From Anaerolineaceae bacterium (GTDB lineage: Bacteria > Chloroflexota > Anaerolineae > Anaerolineales > Anaerolineaceae): a stretch of 5,096 bases of DNA. Where the stretch lies: contig PMIV01000017.1 in the NCBI GenBank assembly GCA_003158355.1, positions 1 through 5,096 of the forward strand. Reading direction: 5' to 3'. The position numbers and the translations under genes were made by a program. Below, piece after piece: positions 257-5,096 of the stretch; position 1 is the stretch's first letter; every line of letters starts with the position of its first letter. The notes under the pieces are model-generated. The model worked only from the letters and a program-made list of their open reading frames with translations. It did not search any database and had not been told where the DNA came from.

Positions 257-499
257 TTATGTATGAAGAGAGCCGCCACCAGTGCAAGCACTGATTGGTG
301 AAACACCAAATGATGTACAAGCAGCTCCAGCAAGGGAGCCACCTGTGCAAGCAGCTTCTGCAGTGTTGCCGGCTGTACAATAACCCAGACTTGCACTTGA
401 ACCGGCAGCACAATAACCTGTTCCTTGGGCTAGCTTGCCCAAGGGAACAATGGCAGGAGCCTCATATTTTGGTTTCTTTGTGATTTTTTGACCTGACAT
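257..499 (-). CDS. candidate RiPP precursor with five-cysteine tandem-repeat core
   Basis: 80-residue peptide. The ATG at 499-497 is preceded by AGGATG with a 7-base spacer. Residues 1-28 form a lysine-rich leader (KKPKYEAPAIVPLGKLAQG). Y12, P15, I17 and G21 match the Y-x2-P-x-L-x3-G pattern known for leaders bound by RRE domains in lasso and other RiPPs. From residue 29 the peptide becomes a low-complexity Gly/Ala/Ser/Thr core with cysteines at 30, 41, 51, 61 and 72, spacing 11, 10, 10 and 11. Each unit starts C-(A/T)-x-G or close to it, then about seven small residues; the fourth unit is looser (CTSFG). Two units are preceded by GY, the others by AA or SA. This regular spacing suggests repeated thioether or other Cys-based modification, which is inference. 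No maturation enzyme is visible; the gene starting at 45 on the same strand is the likely partner. A non-RiPP cysteine-rich small protein is the alternative. Confidence 0.72.
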   Translation of the reverse strand: MSGQKITKKPKYEAPAIVPLGKLAQGTGYCAAGSSASLGYCTAGNTAEAACTGGSLAGAACTSFGVSPISACTGGGSLHT

Positions 500-1182: not shown

Positions 1183-1211
1183 TTGACAGAACAAAACCCG
1201 TAAAGTAATAT
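1183..1211 (+). promoter_or_regulatory. sigma-70-type promoter for the hisD leader
   Basis: A perfect -35 TTGACA (1183-1188) is followed after 17 bases by TAATAT (1206-1211), which matches four of six -10 consensus positions. The usual distance places the start of transcription near A1218, with A1221 as another purine option. Both fall at or within three bases of the ATG of the His-rich leader peptide, so the first message would be leaderless or nearly so. The element sits just upstream of the attenuator that precedes hisD, which supports it. Confidence 0.65.
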
Positions 1212-1220
1212 TGTCCCATT

Positions 1221-1274
1221 ATGCAATTCATCCTGTTGGCTCATCTTCATCAGCATTATATTCAACACCCCTAG
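1221..1274 (+). CDS. hisL: His-rich leader peptide of the hisD attenuator
   Basis: Seventeen-codon peptide MQFILLAHLHQHYIQHP ending in TAG. Histidine is encoded at codons 8, 10, 12 and 16 (CAT at 1242, 1248 and 1254; CAC at 1266), four of the last ten codons. In enterobacterial his operons such a peptide senses charged tRNA-His: ribosomes stalling at His codons allow an antiterminator to form. Here it lies between a good promoter and a terminator directly ahead of hisD, and its 3' end overlaps segment 1 of the competing RNA structures. It has no Shine-Dalgarno; the predicted transcription start is at most about three bases before the ATG, so translation would be leaderless. The symbol is used by analogy of function, not sequence homology. 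Its small size leaves some chance of coincidence, but position, His content and hairpins agree. Confidence 0.72.
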   Translation: MQFILLAHLHQHYIQHP

Positions 1275-1280
1275 AGTGTT
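1264..1280 (+). promoter_or_regulatory. attenuator 1:2 hairpin
   Basis: AACAC (1264-1268), which contains the last His codon, can pair with GTGTT (1276-1280) around a 7-base loop that holds the leader stop codon. In the classical attenuation model this is the pause or 1:2 structure. It uses GTGTT and so competes with the antiterminator segment 1278-1284. The stem is only 5 bp and modest on its own. Confidence 0.45.
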
Positions 1281-1348
1281 TCGGTGGGCGCAGGGCTGCG
1301 CATTTCTAACTAAGTGAACCAAAAAAACTTATAGAATCCCTCCGAAAC
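1278..1348 (+). promoter_or_regulatory. predicted antiterminator (2:3) pairing ahead of hisD
   Basis: GTTTCGG (1278-1284) is exactly complementary to CCGAAAC (1342-1348). The pairing can be extended by AGGG (1292-1295) with CCCT (1338-1341) across a 7-base bulge, or by GGG (1286-1288) with CCC (1338-1340) across one U-U mismatch. Any of these uses the left arm and loop of the terminator hairpin at 1335-1359 and so excludes it. The enclosed DNA includes a separate small hairpin at 1288-1301 (GCGCA/TGCGC, 4-base loop), which is compatible with the 7-bp core pairing but overlaps both extensions. Folding energies were not computed. Confidence 0.55.
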
Positions 1349-1367
1349 CCGGAGGGATTTTCATTTT
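1335..1367 (+). terminator. Rho-independent terminator (attenuator 3:4) just before hisD
   Basis: AATCCCTCCG (1335-1344) and CGGAGGGATT (1350-1359) form a perfect 10-bp stem, six pairs of which are G-C in the upper part, with a 5-base loop. It is followed by TTTTCATTTT counting the T's at the stem end. It ends 16 bases before the hisD ATG and cannot be the terminator of an upstream plus-strand gene because none exists, so an attenuator role is the natural reading. The A-run at 1321-1327 would also allow function on the minus strand. Confidence 0.8.
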
Positions 1368-1383
1368 CAAACAGGAGCCGCTC

Positions 1384-2739
1384 ATGTTTTCGATCATGGA
1401 TGTACCTACTGCCAGGCAAACCATATTAAAGCGTATCGCTTTGGATGAGACCAAGGTCCCAGAAAGCCTGCTGGCCAGGCTGGCGGAGACTTTCGGCGAA
1501 CCGGTAATCCCGGCTGAAGCCGTGCGCCGTATTTTGCAGGATATTCGTACTAATGGCGACAAGGCACTGCGCTCGTGGACGCTGCGGTTGGACCAGGTGG
1601 ATCTGCAGCAGGCATGCATTCCGCAGCAGAAGGTCCAGGCTGCCCTGGCCGGGATAGATCCGGCTCTACGCGCGGCTTTACAGGAATCGGCCAGCCGTAT
1701 CGAACAGTTTTATCGCAAGCAGCCCGCCGTATCCTGGATTGATCAAACAATGGGCGGTACGCTGGGTCAGGTGCTGCGGCCGATCGATCGAGTAGGTTTT
1801 TACATCCCAGGCGGCACGGCGCCGTTACCCTCCACTGTGTTGATGTCGGTGATTCCGGCTCGTGTTGCCGGGGTGCGCAGCGTGGTAGTGGTCACTCCGC
1901 CGGCACGAGGCAGTGGAGAGGTGAATCCGGTCATTCTGGCAGCGGCAGCCATTGCCGGTGTGGACGAAGTCTATGCGGCTGGCGGTGCCCAGGCGATAGG
2001 TGCACTGGCTTATGGAACCGAAAGTATAGCGGCAGTGGATAAGATCGTCGGGCCGGGCAATTTGTTCGTCACCCTGGCCAAGCAGCAGGTGTTTGGCCGG
2101 GTGGGCATCGACGGACTGGCCGGGCCGACCGAAACAATGGTGATCGCGGATGAAAACGCCAACCCGGCCTGGGCGGCTGCCGATCTGCTGGCACAGGCGG
2201 AGCACGATGTGCTGGCGTCGGCCATTTTACTGACCCCCTCGCGTAAACTTGCCGAACAGGTGCAGATCGAGATCGCCGCCTGGCTGGCCGGCAAAGACGG
2301 GGCTGACCTGAGCCGCAGGGAGATCATCGCTCAGTCGCTGCAGGCGCGCGGCGGCGCAGTGATCACCCGCGATATTGCCGAAGCAGTTGATCTGGCCAAT
2401 GCTTATGCACCGGAGCACCTCAACCTGGCCGTTAAGGACGCCTGGAGTTGGCTGGATAAGGTGCAGAACAGCGGGGGAGTGTTTCTGGGCGAGACCTCTT
2501 GCGAGGTGATGGGCGATTATGTGGCCGGCCCCAGCCATGTAATGCCCACAGGTGGCTCAGCCCGCTTTGCCTCTCCGTTGAATGTGTGGGACTTCTTGCA
2601 CATTATCAGCGTGGTCGGGTTGGATGAGCCTACCGCAGCCCGGTTGGGGAAGCAGGCGGATATTCTGGCGCGAGCCGAGGGCTTGAATGCACATGCCCTG
2701 GCTGGGGCATTACGCACACAGAACCCCGAAAAAGAGTAA
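1384..2739 (+). CDS. hisD: histidinol dehydrogenase
   Basis: 451 residues, full length for the family (about 430-440 usual). HisD is a cytoplasmic zinc enzyme that oxidises L-histidinol to L-histidine in two NAD-dependent steps, the last reactions of histidine synthesis. Visible signatures: [21 protein letters not shown] at 223-243 shortened here to its core GPGN and FGRVGID, then D-G-L-A-G-P-T-E at 243-250. The zinc ligands correspond to Q271, H274, D378 and H437, and the catalytic Glu-His pair is E344-H345 in APEHLNL; H385 in AGPSH is also kept. The start at 1384 has AGGAG at 1373-1377 with a 6-base spacer; M5 is a less likely alternative. It is preceded by a His-codon attenuator, which agrees with a biosynthetic role. 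No other his gene is adjacent. HisD-like dehydrogenases of sulfonate catabolism (HpsN) are the main alternative, made less likely by the attenuator. Confidence 0.93.
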
Positions 2740-3754: not shown

Positions 3755-4594
3755 ATGGAAAATACACCAATTGCAAAAGAAATGACTTTCAAGGAGCCGC
3801 GGCACCAGCGGCTCCTTGAACTGCGCAGTGAGATACCGGCGCGAATCTACTGGGGCGCCGGCGCGGCTTTTTTCGCCCTGGTATTAATCCTCTGGCTGCT
3901 GCTGACTTCATTTGGGTTGGTACCGGCGCTCTTTCTGCCGGGGCCGCAGGCCGTCTGGAGGGAGTTTATCCGCCAGGTTAGCACAGGGATCCTGCTGCAG
4001 GATGCCAGTGCCAGTTTGTACCGTATCATGCTCGGCTGGATCATCTCCACCCTGTTCGCGGTTCCCATCGGCATTATGATGGGCAACTTCAAGTTCTTTG
4101 AGGGCATGCTCGAACCTTTTATCGACCTGATGCGCTACATGCCGGCAGTGGCATTCGTTCCGCTCACCATTCTGTGGGTGGGCGTGGGCGACAGCCAGAA
4201 AATATTGATCTTGTTCATCGGCACGTTCTTTCAGGAAGTGCTGATGATCATGGATAACGTCAAGGGGGTGCCGCGCGAACTGATCGAGGTCAGCTCCACC
4301 TTTGGTCTTTCCCGTTTCGAGATACTGCGCGACGTGATCTTGCGCTACGCCATGCCGGGTATCTGGGATACTTTCCGCATTACCCTGGGCTGGGCCTGGA
4401 CTTATCTGGTAGTGGCTGAACTGGTGGCGGCGAACGTCGGGTTGGGATACCGCATCATGCGCGCCCAACGCTTTTTACAGACGGAATCCATCATTCTGGG
4501 AATCATCGTTATCGGTTTGATGGGTCTGGTCACGGATATGTTATTTAAACTGGCCTATCGCCGTATGTTCCGCTGGATGGATCGCAAAGGATGA
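3755..4594 (+). CDS. ABC transporter permease, NitT/TauT (SsuC/TauC) type
   Basis: 279 residues, typical length. It forms the membrane channel of the importer. A cytoplasmic N-terminus of about 32 residues leads to roughly six membrane segments near 34-54, 90-110, 122-142, 148-168, 208-228 and 246-266. FLPGP at 60-64 is the usual LPxP-like element after the first helix, and the EAA-type coupling loop, which docks on the ATPase, lies around 178-203 (E178, G184, P201). The start is three bases after the binding-protein stop, with no visible Shine-Dalgarno, so translational coupling is likely; M10 (3782) is an alternative start. Both candidate starts precede a 13-bp perfect hairpin at 3788-3820. 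The family is clear; the substrate is not. Confidence 0.9.
   Translation: MENTPIAKEMTFKEPRHQRLLELRSEIPARIYWGAGAAFFALVLILWLLLTSFGLVPALFLPGPQAVWREFIRQVSTGILLQDASASLYRIMLGWIISTLFAVPIGIMMGNFKFFEGMLEPFIDLMRYMPAVAFVPLTILWVGVGDSQKILILFIGTFFQEVLMIMDNVKGVPRELIEVSSTFGLSRFEILRDVILRYAMPGIWDTFRITLGWAWTYLVVAELVAANVGLGYRIMRAQRFLQTESIILGIIVIGLMGLVTDMLFKLAYRRMFRWMDRKG
3788..3820 (+). repeat. 13-bp perfect hairpin inside the permease start region
   Basis: TTCAAGGAGCCGC (3788-3800) and GCGGCTCCTTGAA (3808-3820) are exactly complementary with a 7-base loop. The hairpin covers about codons 12-22 of the permease and is followed by the 8-base palindrome CTGCGCAG (3821-3828) rather than a T-tract, so it is not a standard terminator. 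It could block 3' exonucleases and stabilise the binding-protein message, or lower permease translation, both of which would favour excess binding protein. This is inference from structure and position. Confidence 0.7.
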
Positions 4595-4598
4595 AGCA

Positions 4599-5096
4599 AT
4601 GAATATTCCGGCATTAGAACTGGATCAAATCTGGATAAAATTTTCACCGGCCCGCCAGGCTGAAGTGGTGGCAGTGGAGGGGGCTTCGCTTTCGGTTGCC
4701 GAGAACGAGTTCGTTTCACTCATCGGTCCTTCCGGCTGCGGAAAATCCACCCTGCTCAACCTGATTGCTGGATTCGAAGAACCGACCGCGGGGGAGATCA
4801 CACTAGACGGAGCGCGGGTGGAAGGGCCGCATTATGATCGGCTCATGCTGTTCCAGGAGCATGGGCTGTTTCCCTGGCTCAACGTCATCGAGAACGTGCT
4901 CTTCGGCCTGAGACGCCAGTTCCGCTTCAAGCCCAAAGCGCGCCGGCAAAAGGCCCGGCAATTCCTCCAGATGGTCCATCTCGACCAGTTCGAAAAGGCG
5001 CCCATTCATGAACTGTCGGGCGGCATGAAACAGCGGGTGGGCTTTGCCCGCGCACTGGTGGTCGAGCCGGAGGTGCTCTTCATGGACGAGCCTTTC
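4599..5096 (+). CDS. ABC transporter ATP-binding protein, NitT/TauT (SsuB/TauB) type, 3' end missing
   Basis: Partial gene, open to the window end; 166 codons are present of a usual 250-270. It powers the importer by ATP hydrolysis on the cytoplasmic side. Visible motifs in order: Walker A GPSGCGKST (43-51), Q-loop glutamine Q86 in LMLFQEHGLFPW, ABC signature LSGGMKQR (139-146), and Walker B VLFMDEP (159-165), with the catalytic glutamate E164. The H-loop lies beyond the window. The start ATG at 4599 has AAAGGA at 4586-4591 with a 7-base spacer and follows the permease stop by four bases, so the genes form one operon. The phrase F-Q-E-x-x-L-F-P-W is typical of this importer class. The substrate is not determined by this subunit. 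Confidence 0.9.
   Translation, partial: MNIPALELDQIWIKFSPARQAEVVAVEGASLSVAENEFVSLIGPSGCGKSTLLNLIAGFEEPTAGEITLDGARVEGPHYDRLMLFQEHGLFPWLNVIENVLFGLRRQFRFKPKARRQKARQFLQMVHLDQFEKAPIHELSGGMKQRVGFARALVVEPEVLFMDEPF

What the first reader, a model, noticed from the sequence alone, without database searches (positions are those of the whole stretch)
1183..1383. Histidine leader-peptide attenuator in front of a lone hisD
The sequence shows, in order, a promoter, a 17-codon ORF with four His codons, alternative hairpins, and a strong terminator ending just before the hisD RBS. This is the organisation established for enterobacterial his operons, but the peptide is not a His run; the His codons are spread out. 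If the host is a Chloroflexota member, as the proteins suggest, I know of no well-described his leader peptide there.
Basis: partly seen in the sequence, partly recalled or inferred. Interest (0 to 1): 0.75.

Follow-up and report, generated by a model that had tools for sequence, protein, structure and literature searches.

The report
Leaderless histidine attenuator before hisD
In an uncultured Anaerolineales bacterium the gene for the last step of histidine synthesis, with transporter genes behind it, follows a tiny histidine-rich reading frame and a terminator hairpin that are predicted to act together as a histidine-sensing on/off switch, a layout that recurs in relatives and that likely starts translation at the very first bases of the message.

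Summary
Promoter (1183-1211), 17-codon ORF with four His codons (1221-1274), antiterminator arm (1278-1288) and terminator (1334-1360) lie in order before hisD. With the window, 19 loci in 11 genera of two Anaerolineales families share the layout. Of 22 terminator-bearing hisD upstream regions, 17 hold a His-rich small ORF; the next amino acid reaches 8. In a folding model (18 loci) the terminator arm is captured when a ribosome stands at His codons (mean 0.74) and mostly freed at the stop (0.21); shuffled spacers lose most of this difference, although 10 of 18 loci, the window included, are weak singly. Further: (1) the leader start lies 6-12 nt behind the -10 box without a Shine-Dalgarno, so the leader is predicted to be leaderless. 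(2) The host's main his operon, on another contig and without hisD, has its own leader of this kind; 14 of 19 hisD-leader genomes have both. (3) hisD is followed by an SsuA/NMT1-type ABC transporter, probably co-controlled. (4) 0 of 60 hisD loci elsewhere in the phylum show it. It works like the enterobacterial his attenuator but matches no Rfam family. Histidine response, transcription start and translation are untested. A new variant of a known kind.

The parts
1183..1211 (+). sigma-70-type promoter: -35 TTGACA 1183-1188, -10 TAATAT 1206-1211; expected transcription start about 1218
   Evidence: TTGAC[AGT]-17/18-TAnnnT just before the leader in 17 of 18 relatives (L132's contig does not reach it); start site inferred from spacing
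1221..1274 (+). leader peptide ORF MQFILLAHLHQHYIQHP, His codons 1242, 1248, 1254, 1266; start 9 nt after the -10 box, no Shine-Dalgarno (predicted leaderless)
1239..1245 (+). possible protector arm (1) pairing with 1283-1289, overlapping the first His codon; extended by 1229-1236 with 1290-1297
   Evidence: MFE folds; conservation not tested
1278..1288 (+). antiterminator arm (2): GTTTCGG pairs CCGAAAC 1342-1348, GG 1286-1287 pairs CC 1339-1340, T1285 x T1341 mismatch
1288..1301 (+). small hairpin GCGCA-GGGC-TGCGC inside the antiterminator
   Evidence: fold
1334..1344 (+). terminator 5' arm (3), partner of both the antiterminator arm and the 3' arm
1350..1367 (+). terminator 3' arm (1350-1360) and U-rich tail to 1367
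1384..2739 (+). hisD, L-histidinol dehydrogenase (RBS CAGGAG about 1371-1376, outside the terminator stem)
   Evidence: TIGR00069 503 bits, cut-off 243.8; nearest solved structures are histidinol dehydrogenases, DHPS dehydrogenases far lower; only hisD match in the genome
2789..3751 (+). SsuA/NMT1-type ABC transporter substrate-binding lipoprotein, probably in the hisD operon
   Evidence: TIGR01728 179.1 bits, cut-off 163.5; a homologue follows hisD in 8 relatives' loci
3755..4594 (+). ABC transporter permease
4599..5096 (+). ABC transporter ATPase, cut by the contig end

Best explanation
The stretch 1183-1383 is a promoter, a 17-codon reading frame with four His codons, an antiterminator arm and a terminator before hisD, and it is predicted to be a histidine-responsive, ribosome-mediated transcription attenuator whose leader peptide likely is translated from a leaderless message. 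Inferred mechanism: RNA polymerase starts near 1218, so the leader AUG lies within about 3 nt of the 5' end and a 70S ribosome would load without a Shine-Dalgarno. When charged tRNA-His is scarce the ribosome stalls at the His codons (1242-1268); arm 1278-1288 is free and captures the terminator's 5' arm (1339-1348), so polymerase runs on into hisD and the transporter genes. When tRNA-His is charged the ribosome reaches the stop codon (1272-1274) and covers that arm, the terminator 1334-1360 forms and transcription ends near 1361-1367. Shown by sequence and comparison: the parts, their order, their recurrence, and, over the family, pairing beyond shuffles and swaps. Predicted only: start site, translation, termination, histidine response, and co-transcription of the transporter.
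For: Recurrence: of 147 distinct Anaerolineales hisD upstream regions held, 22 had a terminator by my scan; 17 of these 22 had a small ORF with at least 3 His in 8 codons (next best amino acid Ile, 8 of 22), and for at least 4 in 8 His 10 against at most 2 for any other. With L177 (terminator missed by the scan) and L204 (two His) the set is 19 including the window, 11 genera, 2 families. Pairing (18 loci, L132 left out): in 17 of 18 at most 29 of 300 shuffled spacers pair as well with the terminator arm (L140: 95 of 300), the window 3 of 300; own pairs mean -15.9 kcal/mol against -12.0 swapped, 0 of 20000 permutations as good. Ribosome-position model: terminator arm captured 0.74 at His codons, 0.21 at the stop; with spacers shuffled the mean difference is 0.12 against 0.53 observed, highest of 60 null replicates 0.29. 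A second leader in the same genome before hisG (MIINQSLHLNHHAYPPGKGLEVG, terminator), and hisG leaders in 14 of the 17 hisG regions lying apart from hisD that I read. Leaderless: the leader start lies 6-12 nt after the -10 hexamer in 18 of the 19 loci, all whose contig reaches the promoter (hexamers chosen by best score over about 230 nt, not by nearness to the start); anti-SD energy mean 0.28 before leaders, -7.2 before hisD, stronger at hisD in 18 of 18.
Against: No expression data. Singly, 10 of 18 loci have more than 3 of 60 shuffled spacers with as large a His-stop difference, the window among them (5 of 60), and the window's capture at the stop is still 0.41 with a 12-nt footprint. The host hisG leader's duplex is no better than shuffles (115 of 300). 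Loci are related, so the combined p-values overstate. In the swap test the own arm is the best partner in only 6 of 18. The generic terminator scan did not list the hairpin. The His codons of the window are spread, not a run. The contig is 5 kb in a MAG of 84% completeness and 3.9% contamination. A ribosome-free window transcript is predicted to read through (0.71), so the default without translation would not be termination here. The transporter also follows leader-free hisD in three loci (L134, L135, L157).
Confidence: 0.85

Rival explanations
1. A constitutive terminator and a chance His-containing ORF: the hairpin simply lowers expression or insulates hisD, without histidine sensing.
For: Window by itself: 11 of 5000 shuffles give four His in ten codons, modest folding z, 5 of 60 in the ribosome model.
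Against: The His-rich frame recurs specifically with terminators in relatives and a second time in the same genome before hisG; the promoter lies between leader and the upstream region, so insulation from upstream transcription would not need a terminator placed after it.
Confidence: 0.06
2. A T-box or other tRNA/metabolite-binding leader for histidine, in which the His codons are incidental.
For: T-boxes control his genes in Firmicutes (PMC9413887, passages) and T-box motifs are reported in Chloroflexi (PMC3766115, passages).
Against: No Rfam family, T-box included, at gathering score in 78,579 bases of 20 loci; in the window only sub-threshold Phe_leader and rnk_pseudo; the leader of about 150 nt is filled by ORF and hairpins.
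Confidence: 0.03
3. A translated upstream ORF that acts by translational coupling or reinitiation on hisD rather than by transcription termination.
For: Effects of short upstream ORFs on the next gene are discussed for mycobacteria and for leader genes in general (PMC4633059, PMC4833913, passages).
Against: The leader stop lies 109 nt before hisD in the window and 67-142 nt in relatives; hisD has its own Shine-Dalgarno outside the hairpin; hairpin plus U-rich tail has the form of a terminator.
Confidence: 0.04

Closest known systems
Enterobacterial his operon attenuator (Rfam RF00514 His_leader)
   Same: His-codon leader peptide, antiterminator/terminator logic, histidine genes downstream
   Different: No match to RF00514; predicted leaderless start; 17 codons with spread His codons instead of the 18-residue peptide with seven consecutive His given for the enterobacterial operon (PMC3896937, passages); split his genes with two leaders; transporter behind hisD
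His-leader attenuators of Firmicutes (B. cereus group, Eubacteriales, Erysipelotrichales: PMC9413887, passages; hisS/hisZ leaders of bacilli: PMC2965389, passages)
   Same: Short ORF with 3-5 His codons, attenuator and terminator hairpins before his genes
   Different: Other phylum; the passages I saw do not mention a leaderless layout; no sequence comparison made
Leaderless polycysteine ORF attenuators of mycobacteria (Canestrari et al. 2020, not read, as cited in PMC9031893; candidates in PMC4633059, passages)
   Same: Leaderless short ORF rich in the sensed amino acid before operon genes
   Different: Cysteine, mycobacteria; described in the passage seen as regulating translation of downstream genes
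Sinorhizobium meliloti trpL (rnTrpL; PMC7298713, passages)
   Same: Leader transcript starts at the AUG of the leader ORF; transcription attenuation
   Different: Tryptophan, Alphaproteobacteria

Membership tests
Ribosome-mediated (leader-peptide) transcription attenuators | short ORF enriched in codons of the amino acid made by the downstream genes | tested here: met
   4 His of 17 codons before hisD; His ORF in 17 of 22 terminator loci against at most 8 of 22 for any other amino acid
Ribosome-mediated (leader-peptide) transcription attenuators | intrinsic terminator between leader ORF and first gene | tested here: met
   1334-1367, though not listed by the generic scan; functional termination not tested
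Ribosome-mediated (leader-peptide) transcription attenuators | mutually exclusive antiterminator exposed by a ribosome at control codons and covered at the stop | tested here: met
   computational and at family level; 10 of 18 loci weak singly, window 5 of 60
Ribosome-mediated (leader-peptide) transcription attenuators | readthrough rises on starvation for that amino acid | not testable with these tools
   needs experiment
Rfam RF00514 His_leader | covariance-model score at or above gathering | tested here: not met
   no match in the window at E up to 1 nor in 20 loci at gathering
T-box (RF00230) | T-box covariance model match | tested here: not met
Leaderless mRNAs | start codon at or within a few nt of the 5' end, no Shine-Dalgarno | tested here: inconclusive
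   -10 box ends 6-12 nt before the start in 18 loci, no SD; 5' ends not mapped
HisD (L-histidinol dehydrogenase), against HisD-like DHPS dehydrogenase | equivalog-level HisD score | tested here: met
   TIGR00069 503 bits; PDB HisD 363 bits against 214 for DHPS dehydrogenase

The most novel reading that the evidence does not exclude
Leaderless amino-acid-sensing leader peptides are a general control mode of amino-acid genes in Anaerolineales: besides two His attenuators, this one genome carries leaderless-type short ORFs with terminators before lysW (Arg/Lys codons), a MetQ-type transporter gene and an aminotransferase gene (Cys/Met codons), and the His attenuator marks the SsuA/NMT1-type transporter behind hisD as a histidine or histidinol importer.
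Probability: 0.4. Interest if true: 0.66.

Novelty: new variant of a known kind. Interest (0 to 1): 0.5.

Why it matters
Leader-peptide attenuation of histidine genes is described for Proteobacteria and some Firmicutes. None of my ten literature searches (open-licence papers only, seen as listings and passages) showed a described case in Chloroflexota; a 2010 comparative survey of attenuators (Lopatovskaya et al.) was not looked up by id and I saw only its reference, so it could contain one. A leaderless version ties translation start to the very 5' end of the message and offers a simple system to study 70S leaderless initiation coupled to transcription in another phylum. Thermanaerothrix daxensis GNS-1 carries both the hisD and the hisG leader, so the switch is testable in a named strain. 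It also gives a rare clue to the substrate of an SsuA/NMT1-type transporter.

Tried and rejected
Rfam search of the window at E up to 1 and of 20 loci at gathering gave no member. A sulfopropanediol-type dehydrogenase was considered because the transporter is SsuA-like, and rejected by scores. The first leader search ran some loci on the wrong strand; it was repeated with orientation. 'Antitermination higher at His than at stop in 18 of 18' is partly built in, because covering more RNA removes partners; the shuffled-spacer control keeps the family-level result but leaves 10 of 18 loci weak singly (L001, L131, L133, L137, L139, L143, L144, L172, L175, L204). The hisG set had no such control. 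Several His-rich ORFs (L005, L156, L161, L162, L163) share an RR/HH-rich, upstream-gene-like pattern without terminator and were left out of the set. Spread: 0 of 60 hisD upstream regions from other orders (8 same class) and classes (52 same phylum), and 0 of 74 loci outside Anaerolineae, have terminator plus His ORF (loci with under 100 nt upstream are skipped by the script); the 60 are a choice from the matches printed, and hisD is often inside an operon, so leaders before other his genes were not tested there. In the Anaerolineales set 108 of 128 other loci have an open frame of at least 70 codons ending within 100 nt of hisD, against 4 of 19 leader loci. Absence of HisA/F, HisB and HisG matches over cut-off in G023 and G306 hinted at hisD-only genomes, but both are 88% complete, so I did not build on it. 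Structure prediction was not used.

Full report
What is there. The window is a whole contig (G000:C7, 5096 bases) of a 2.7-Mb Anaerolineales MAG, 84% complete. hisD (1384-2739) is a true histidinol dehydrogenase (TIGR00069 503 bits) and the only match in the genome. After gaps of 49, 3 and 4 nt follow an SsuA/NMT1-type binding protein, a permease and an ATPase. Upstream lie a TTGACA-17-TAATAT promoter, the ORF MQFILLAHLHQHYIQHP, and the hairpin GAATCCCTCCG-AAACC-CGGAGGGATTT followed by TCATTTTC.

Is it more than chance? For the window alone, moderately: 11 of 5000 shuffles reach four His in ten codons, folding z is -2.73, and the antiterminator pairing is matched by 3 of 300 shuffled spacers; the generic terminator scan did not list the hairpin. 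The weight lies in comparison. From 33 of 61 genomes with a hisD match and 171 of 400 Anaerolineales genomes (sets overlap) I held 147 distinct hisD upstream regions after removing six duplicates; unprinted matches and a number of partial or weaker hits were not fetched. A terminator was scanned in 22; 17 of the 22 hold an ORF with at least 3 His in 8 codons, against 8 of 22 for the next amino acid; with at least 4 in 8 the figures are 10 and 2. Among the 125 without a scanned terminator 6 have such a His ORF; one, L177, has a terminator that the scan missed, the other five (L005, L156, L161, L162, L163) look like readings of an upstream coding gene and were left out. With L177 and with L204 (two His) the set is 19 loci: L001 (window), L002, L004, L006, L016, L131, L132, L133, L137, L139, L140, L142, L143, L144, L172, L175, L177, L204, L213. 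L177 has the same sequence as L049, Thermanaerothrix daxensis GNS-1. L203 has a GTG frame with two His in the same position (read by eye) and is not counted.

Leader peptides. Examples: MKPVLFAHLHHHRLFTLDTFRRAH (L002), MKSNLFAHLHHHRANTHETFRRAL (L133), MTTFNQMHHHHGECPQT (L004), MTANARNHHHHTNFNPLTSEDWSFV (L016), MRTFRLHHHHSTTPSTGRVV (L139), MPFKMFFHRHHAHHEPARKLRVAAPGIL (L177). The window's LLAHLHQHY lines up by eye with LFAHLHHHR of L002 and L133; its spread His codons are a member of a series that includes true runs.

Leaderless layout. In the 18 of 19 loci whose contig reaches the promoter (not L132), the -10 hexamer ends 6-12 nt before the leader start (with the second ATG taken in L172 and L213); a start at the usual distance would leave 0-6 nt of 5' UTR, 3 nt in the window. 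Pairing to the anti-Shine-Dalgarno averages 0.28 kcal/mol before leaders and -7.2 before hisD, stronger at hisD in 18 of 18. This is an inference from spacing. Leaderless genes were detected in 4 of 12 Chloroflexi genomes in one survey (PMC3160421, passages).

Switch. The terminator's 5' arm and loop pair with an arm after the His codons. Over 18 loci (L132 left out) duplexes beat shuffled spacers (at most 29 of 300 as good in 17 of 18; L140 95 of 300) and swapped partners (0 of 20000 permutations, though the own arm ranks first in only 6 of 18). In a model that removes RNA under the ribosome and folds the nascent chain to the terminator loop, the 5' arm is captured with mean probability 0.74 when His codons are in the A site and 0.21 at the stop. 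Because covering RNA tends to lower pairing in any case, I shuffled the spacers: the mean difference falls from 0.53 to 0.12, the highest of 60 null replicates being 0.29. Singly, 8 of 18 loci have at most 3 of 60 shuffles as large; the window has 5 of 60. In the window the MFE fold is the antiterminator at each of the four His codons and is lost at the stop codon. A protector pairing 1239-1245 with 1283-1289 appears in the folds that end before the terminator or include all of it. In most loci, the window included, ribosome-free RNA up to the loop still favours the antiterminator (mean capture 0.51, window 0.71, but 0.01-0.29 in L006, L137, L143, L144, L175, L177, L213), so a ribosome reaching the stop, rather than a protector hairpin, seems to be what permits termination in those.

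The regulon. HisA/F, HisB and HisG matches of the host are on contig C100, hisD is not. The region before hisG there has TTGACA-18-TAAGAT, 9 nt, then MIINQSLHLNHHAYPPGKGLEVG and a terminator. Of 19 genomes whose hisG regions I read, 14 have such a leader before hisG (G000, G025, G348, G350 with GTG start, G018, G144, G241, G252, G258, G177, G209, G260, G278, G126); 2 (G024, G317) have hisG right behind the leader-bearing hisD, G024 with a further His-rich ORF (MKTKIQSIHHMHAHSANI) between the two genes, not followed up; 3 (G401, G210, G270) have none. So 14 of the 19 hisD-leader genomes have both leaders; of the other five, G024 and G317 are as just said, G401 has hisG without a leader, and G023 and G306 gave no hisG match. 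The ribosome model gives higher capture at His than at stop in 14 of 14 hisG leaders, without a shuffle control, and two duplexes, the host's own among them, are no better than shuffles (L254 115 of 300, L261 92 of 300). The transporter follows hisD in the window and in L111/L002, L113/L004, L131, L132, L133, L134, L135 and L157. Of the 15 leader loci whose downstream side was compared, 6 have it (window, L002, L004, L131, L132, L133; several others had only 1.5 kb of flank); L134, L135 and L157 have the transporter without the leader, so the two are not strictly tied.

Spread. No terminator plus His ORF in 60 hisD loci from elsewhere in the phylum or in 74 loci outside Anaerolineae.

Relation to what is known. 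It works like the enterobacterial his attenuator, but it is not an Rfam His_leader. His attenuators are also reported for Firmicutes (PMC9413887, PMC2965389, passages); one survey saw no conserved RNA element before histidine operons of Actinobacteria (PMC1262725, passages). Leader ORFs at the 5' end of the transcript are known for S. meliloti trpL (PMC7298713) and mycobacterial cysteine ORFs (as cited in PMC9031893). Searches joining Chloroflexi, Chloroflexota, Chloroflexus or Anaerolineae with attenuation, leader peptide or leaderless terms (20 of 29 papers listed in the last) showed no description of one in the listings and passages I saw; Lopatovskaya et al. 2010 was seen only as a reference. 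Hence: a new variant (predicted leaderless, Chloroflexota, split regulon with transporter) of a known kind.

Noticed in passing
L277 (G000:C44:1361-1401, minus strand): Leaderless-type promoter and ORF MLCKSALLRARRTPPITSKKDGSVRFK plus terminator before lysW (over its NCBIfam cut-off) and a lysX-like ORF (named by eye); model capture of the terminator arm 0.8 at the Arg codons, 0.3-0.5 near the stop, no shuffle control: looks like an Arg/Lys attenuator.
   Followed up: partly
L295 (G000:C292:16656-16693) and L286 (G000:C207:12006-12043): Two leaderless-type ORFs, MLILNRKSQTCMCSCMMMRRRW... before a MetQ-like lipoprotein gene and MKNFQIREMLCMCLCTMAKRW... before a partial aminotransferase gene (both below the curated cut-offs), with terminators and a shared CMC.C..M..RW-like pattern: possible Cys/Met attenuators.
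   Followed up: partly
L282 (G000:C178:31039-31078): Leaderless-type ORF MRDNSRPFKINNKSEASTTSDKNLIFISTF running into a terminator before a dihydroorotase-like gene (named by eye from its first residues).
   Followed up: partly
G000, whole genome: TTGACA-N16-18-TAnnnT-N6-11-ATG occurs 23 times against 1 for the reversed pattern, which suggests real leaderless promoters.
   Followed up: partly
window 257-499, minus strand: 80-residue ORF KYEAPAIVPLG...GYCAAGSSASLGYCTAGN... with regular Cys-containing repeats, like a modified-peptide precursor; four homologues besides itself, no NCBIfam or Pfam match.
   Followed up: partly
G210 and G270 (L134, L135, L259, L260): Same genus as G401: hisD with the transporter but no His leader or terminator before hisD, and no His leader before hisG, so the device seems lost or replaced there.
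   Followed up: no
L272 (G024), between hisD and hisG: A second His-rich ORF (MKTKIQSIHHMHAHSANI) between hisD and hisG of a genome that also has the hisD leader.
   Followed up: no
genus of the host (G001-G015): 13 of 15 same-genus genomes, of 68-100% completeness, have no hisD match, so the window's hisD may have been kept or gained sporadically.
   Followed up: no
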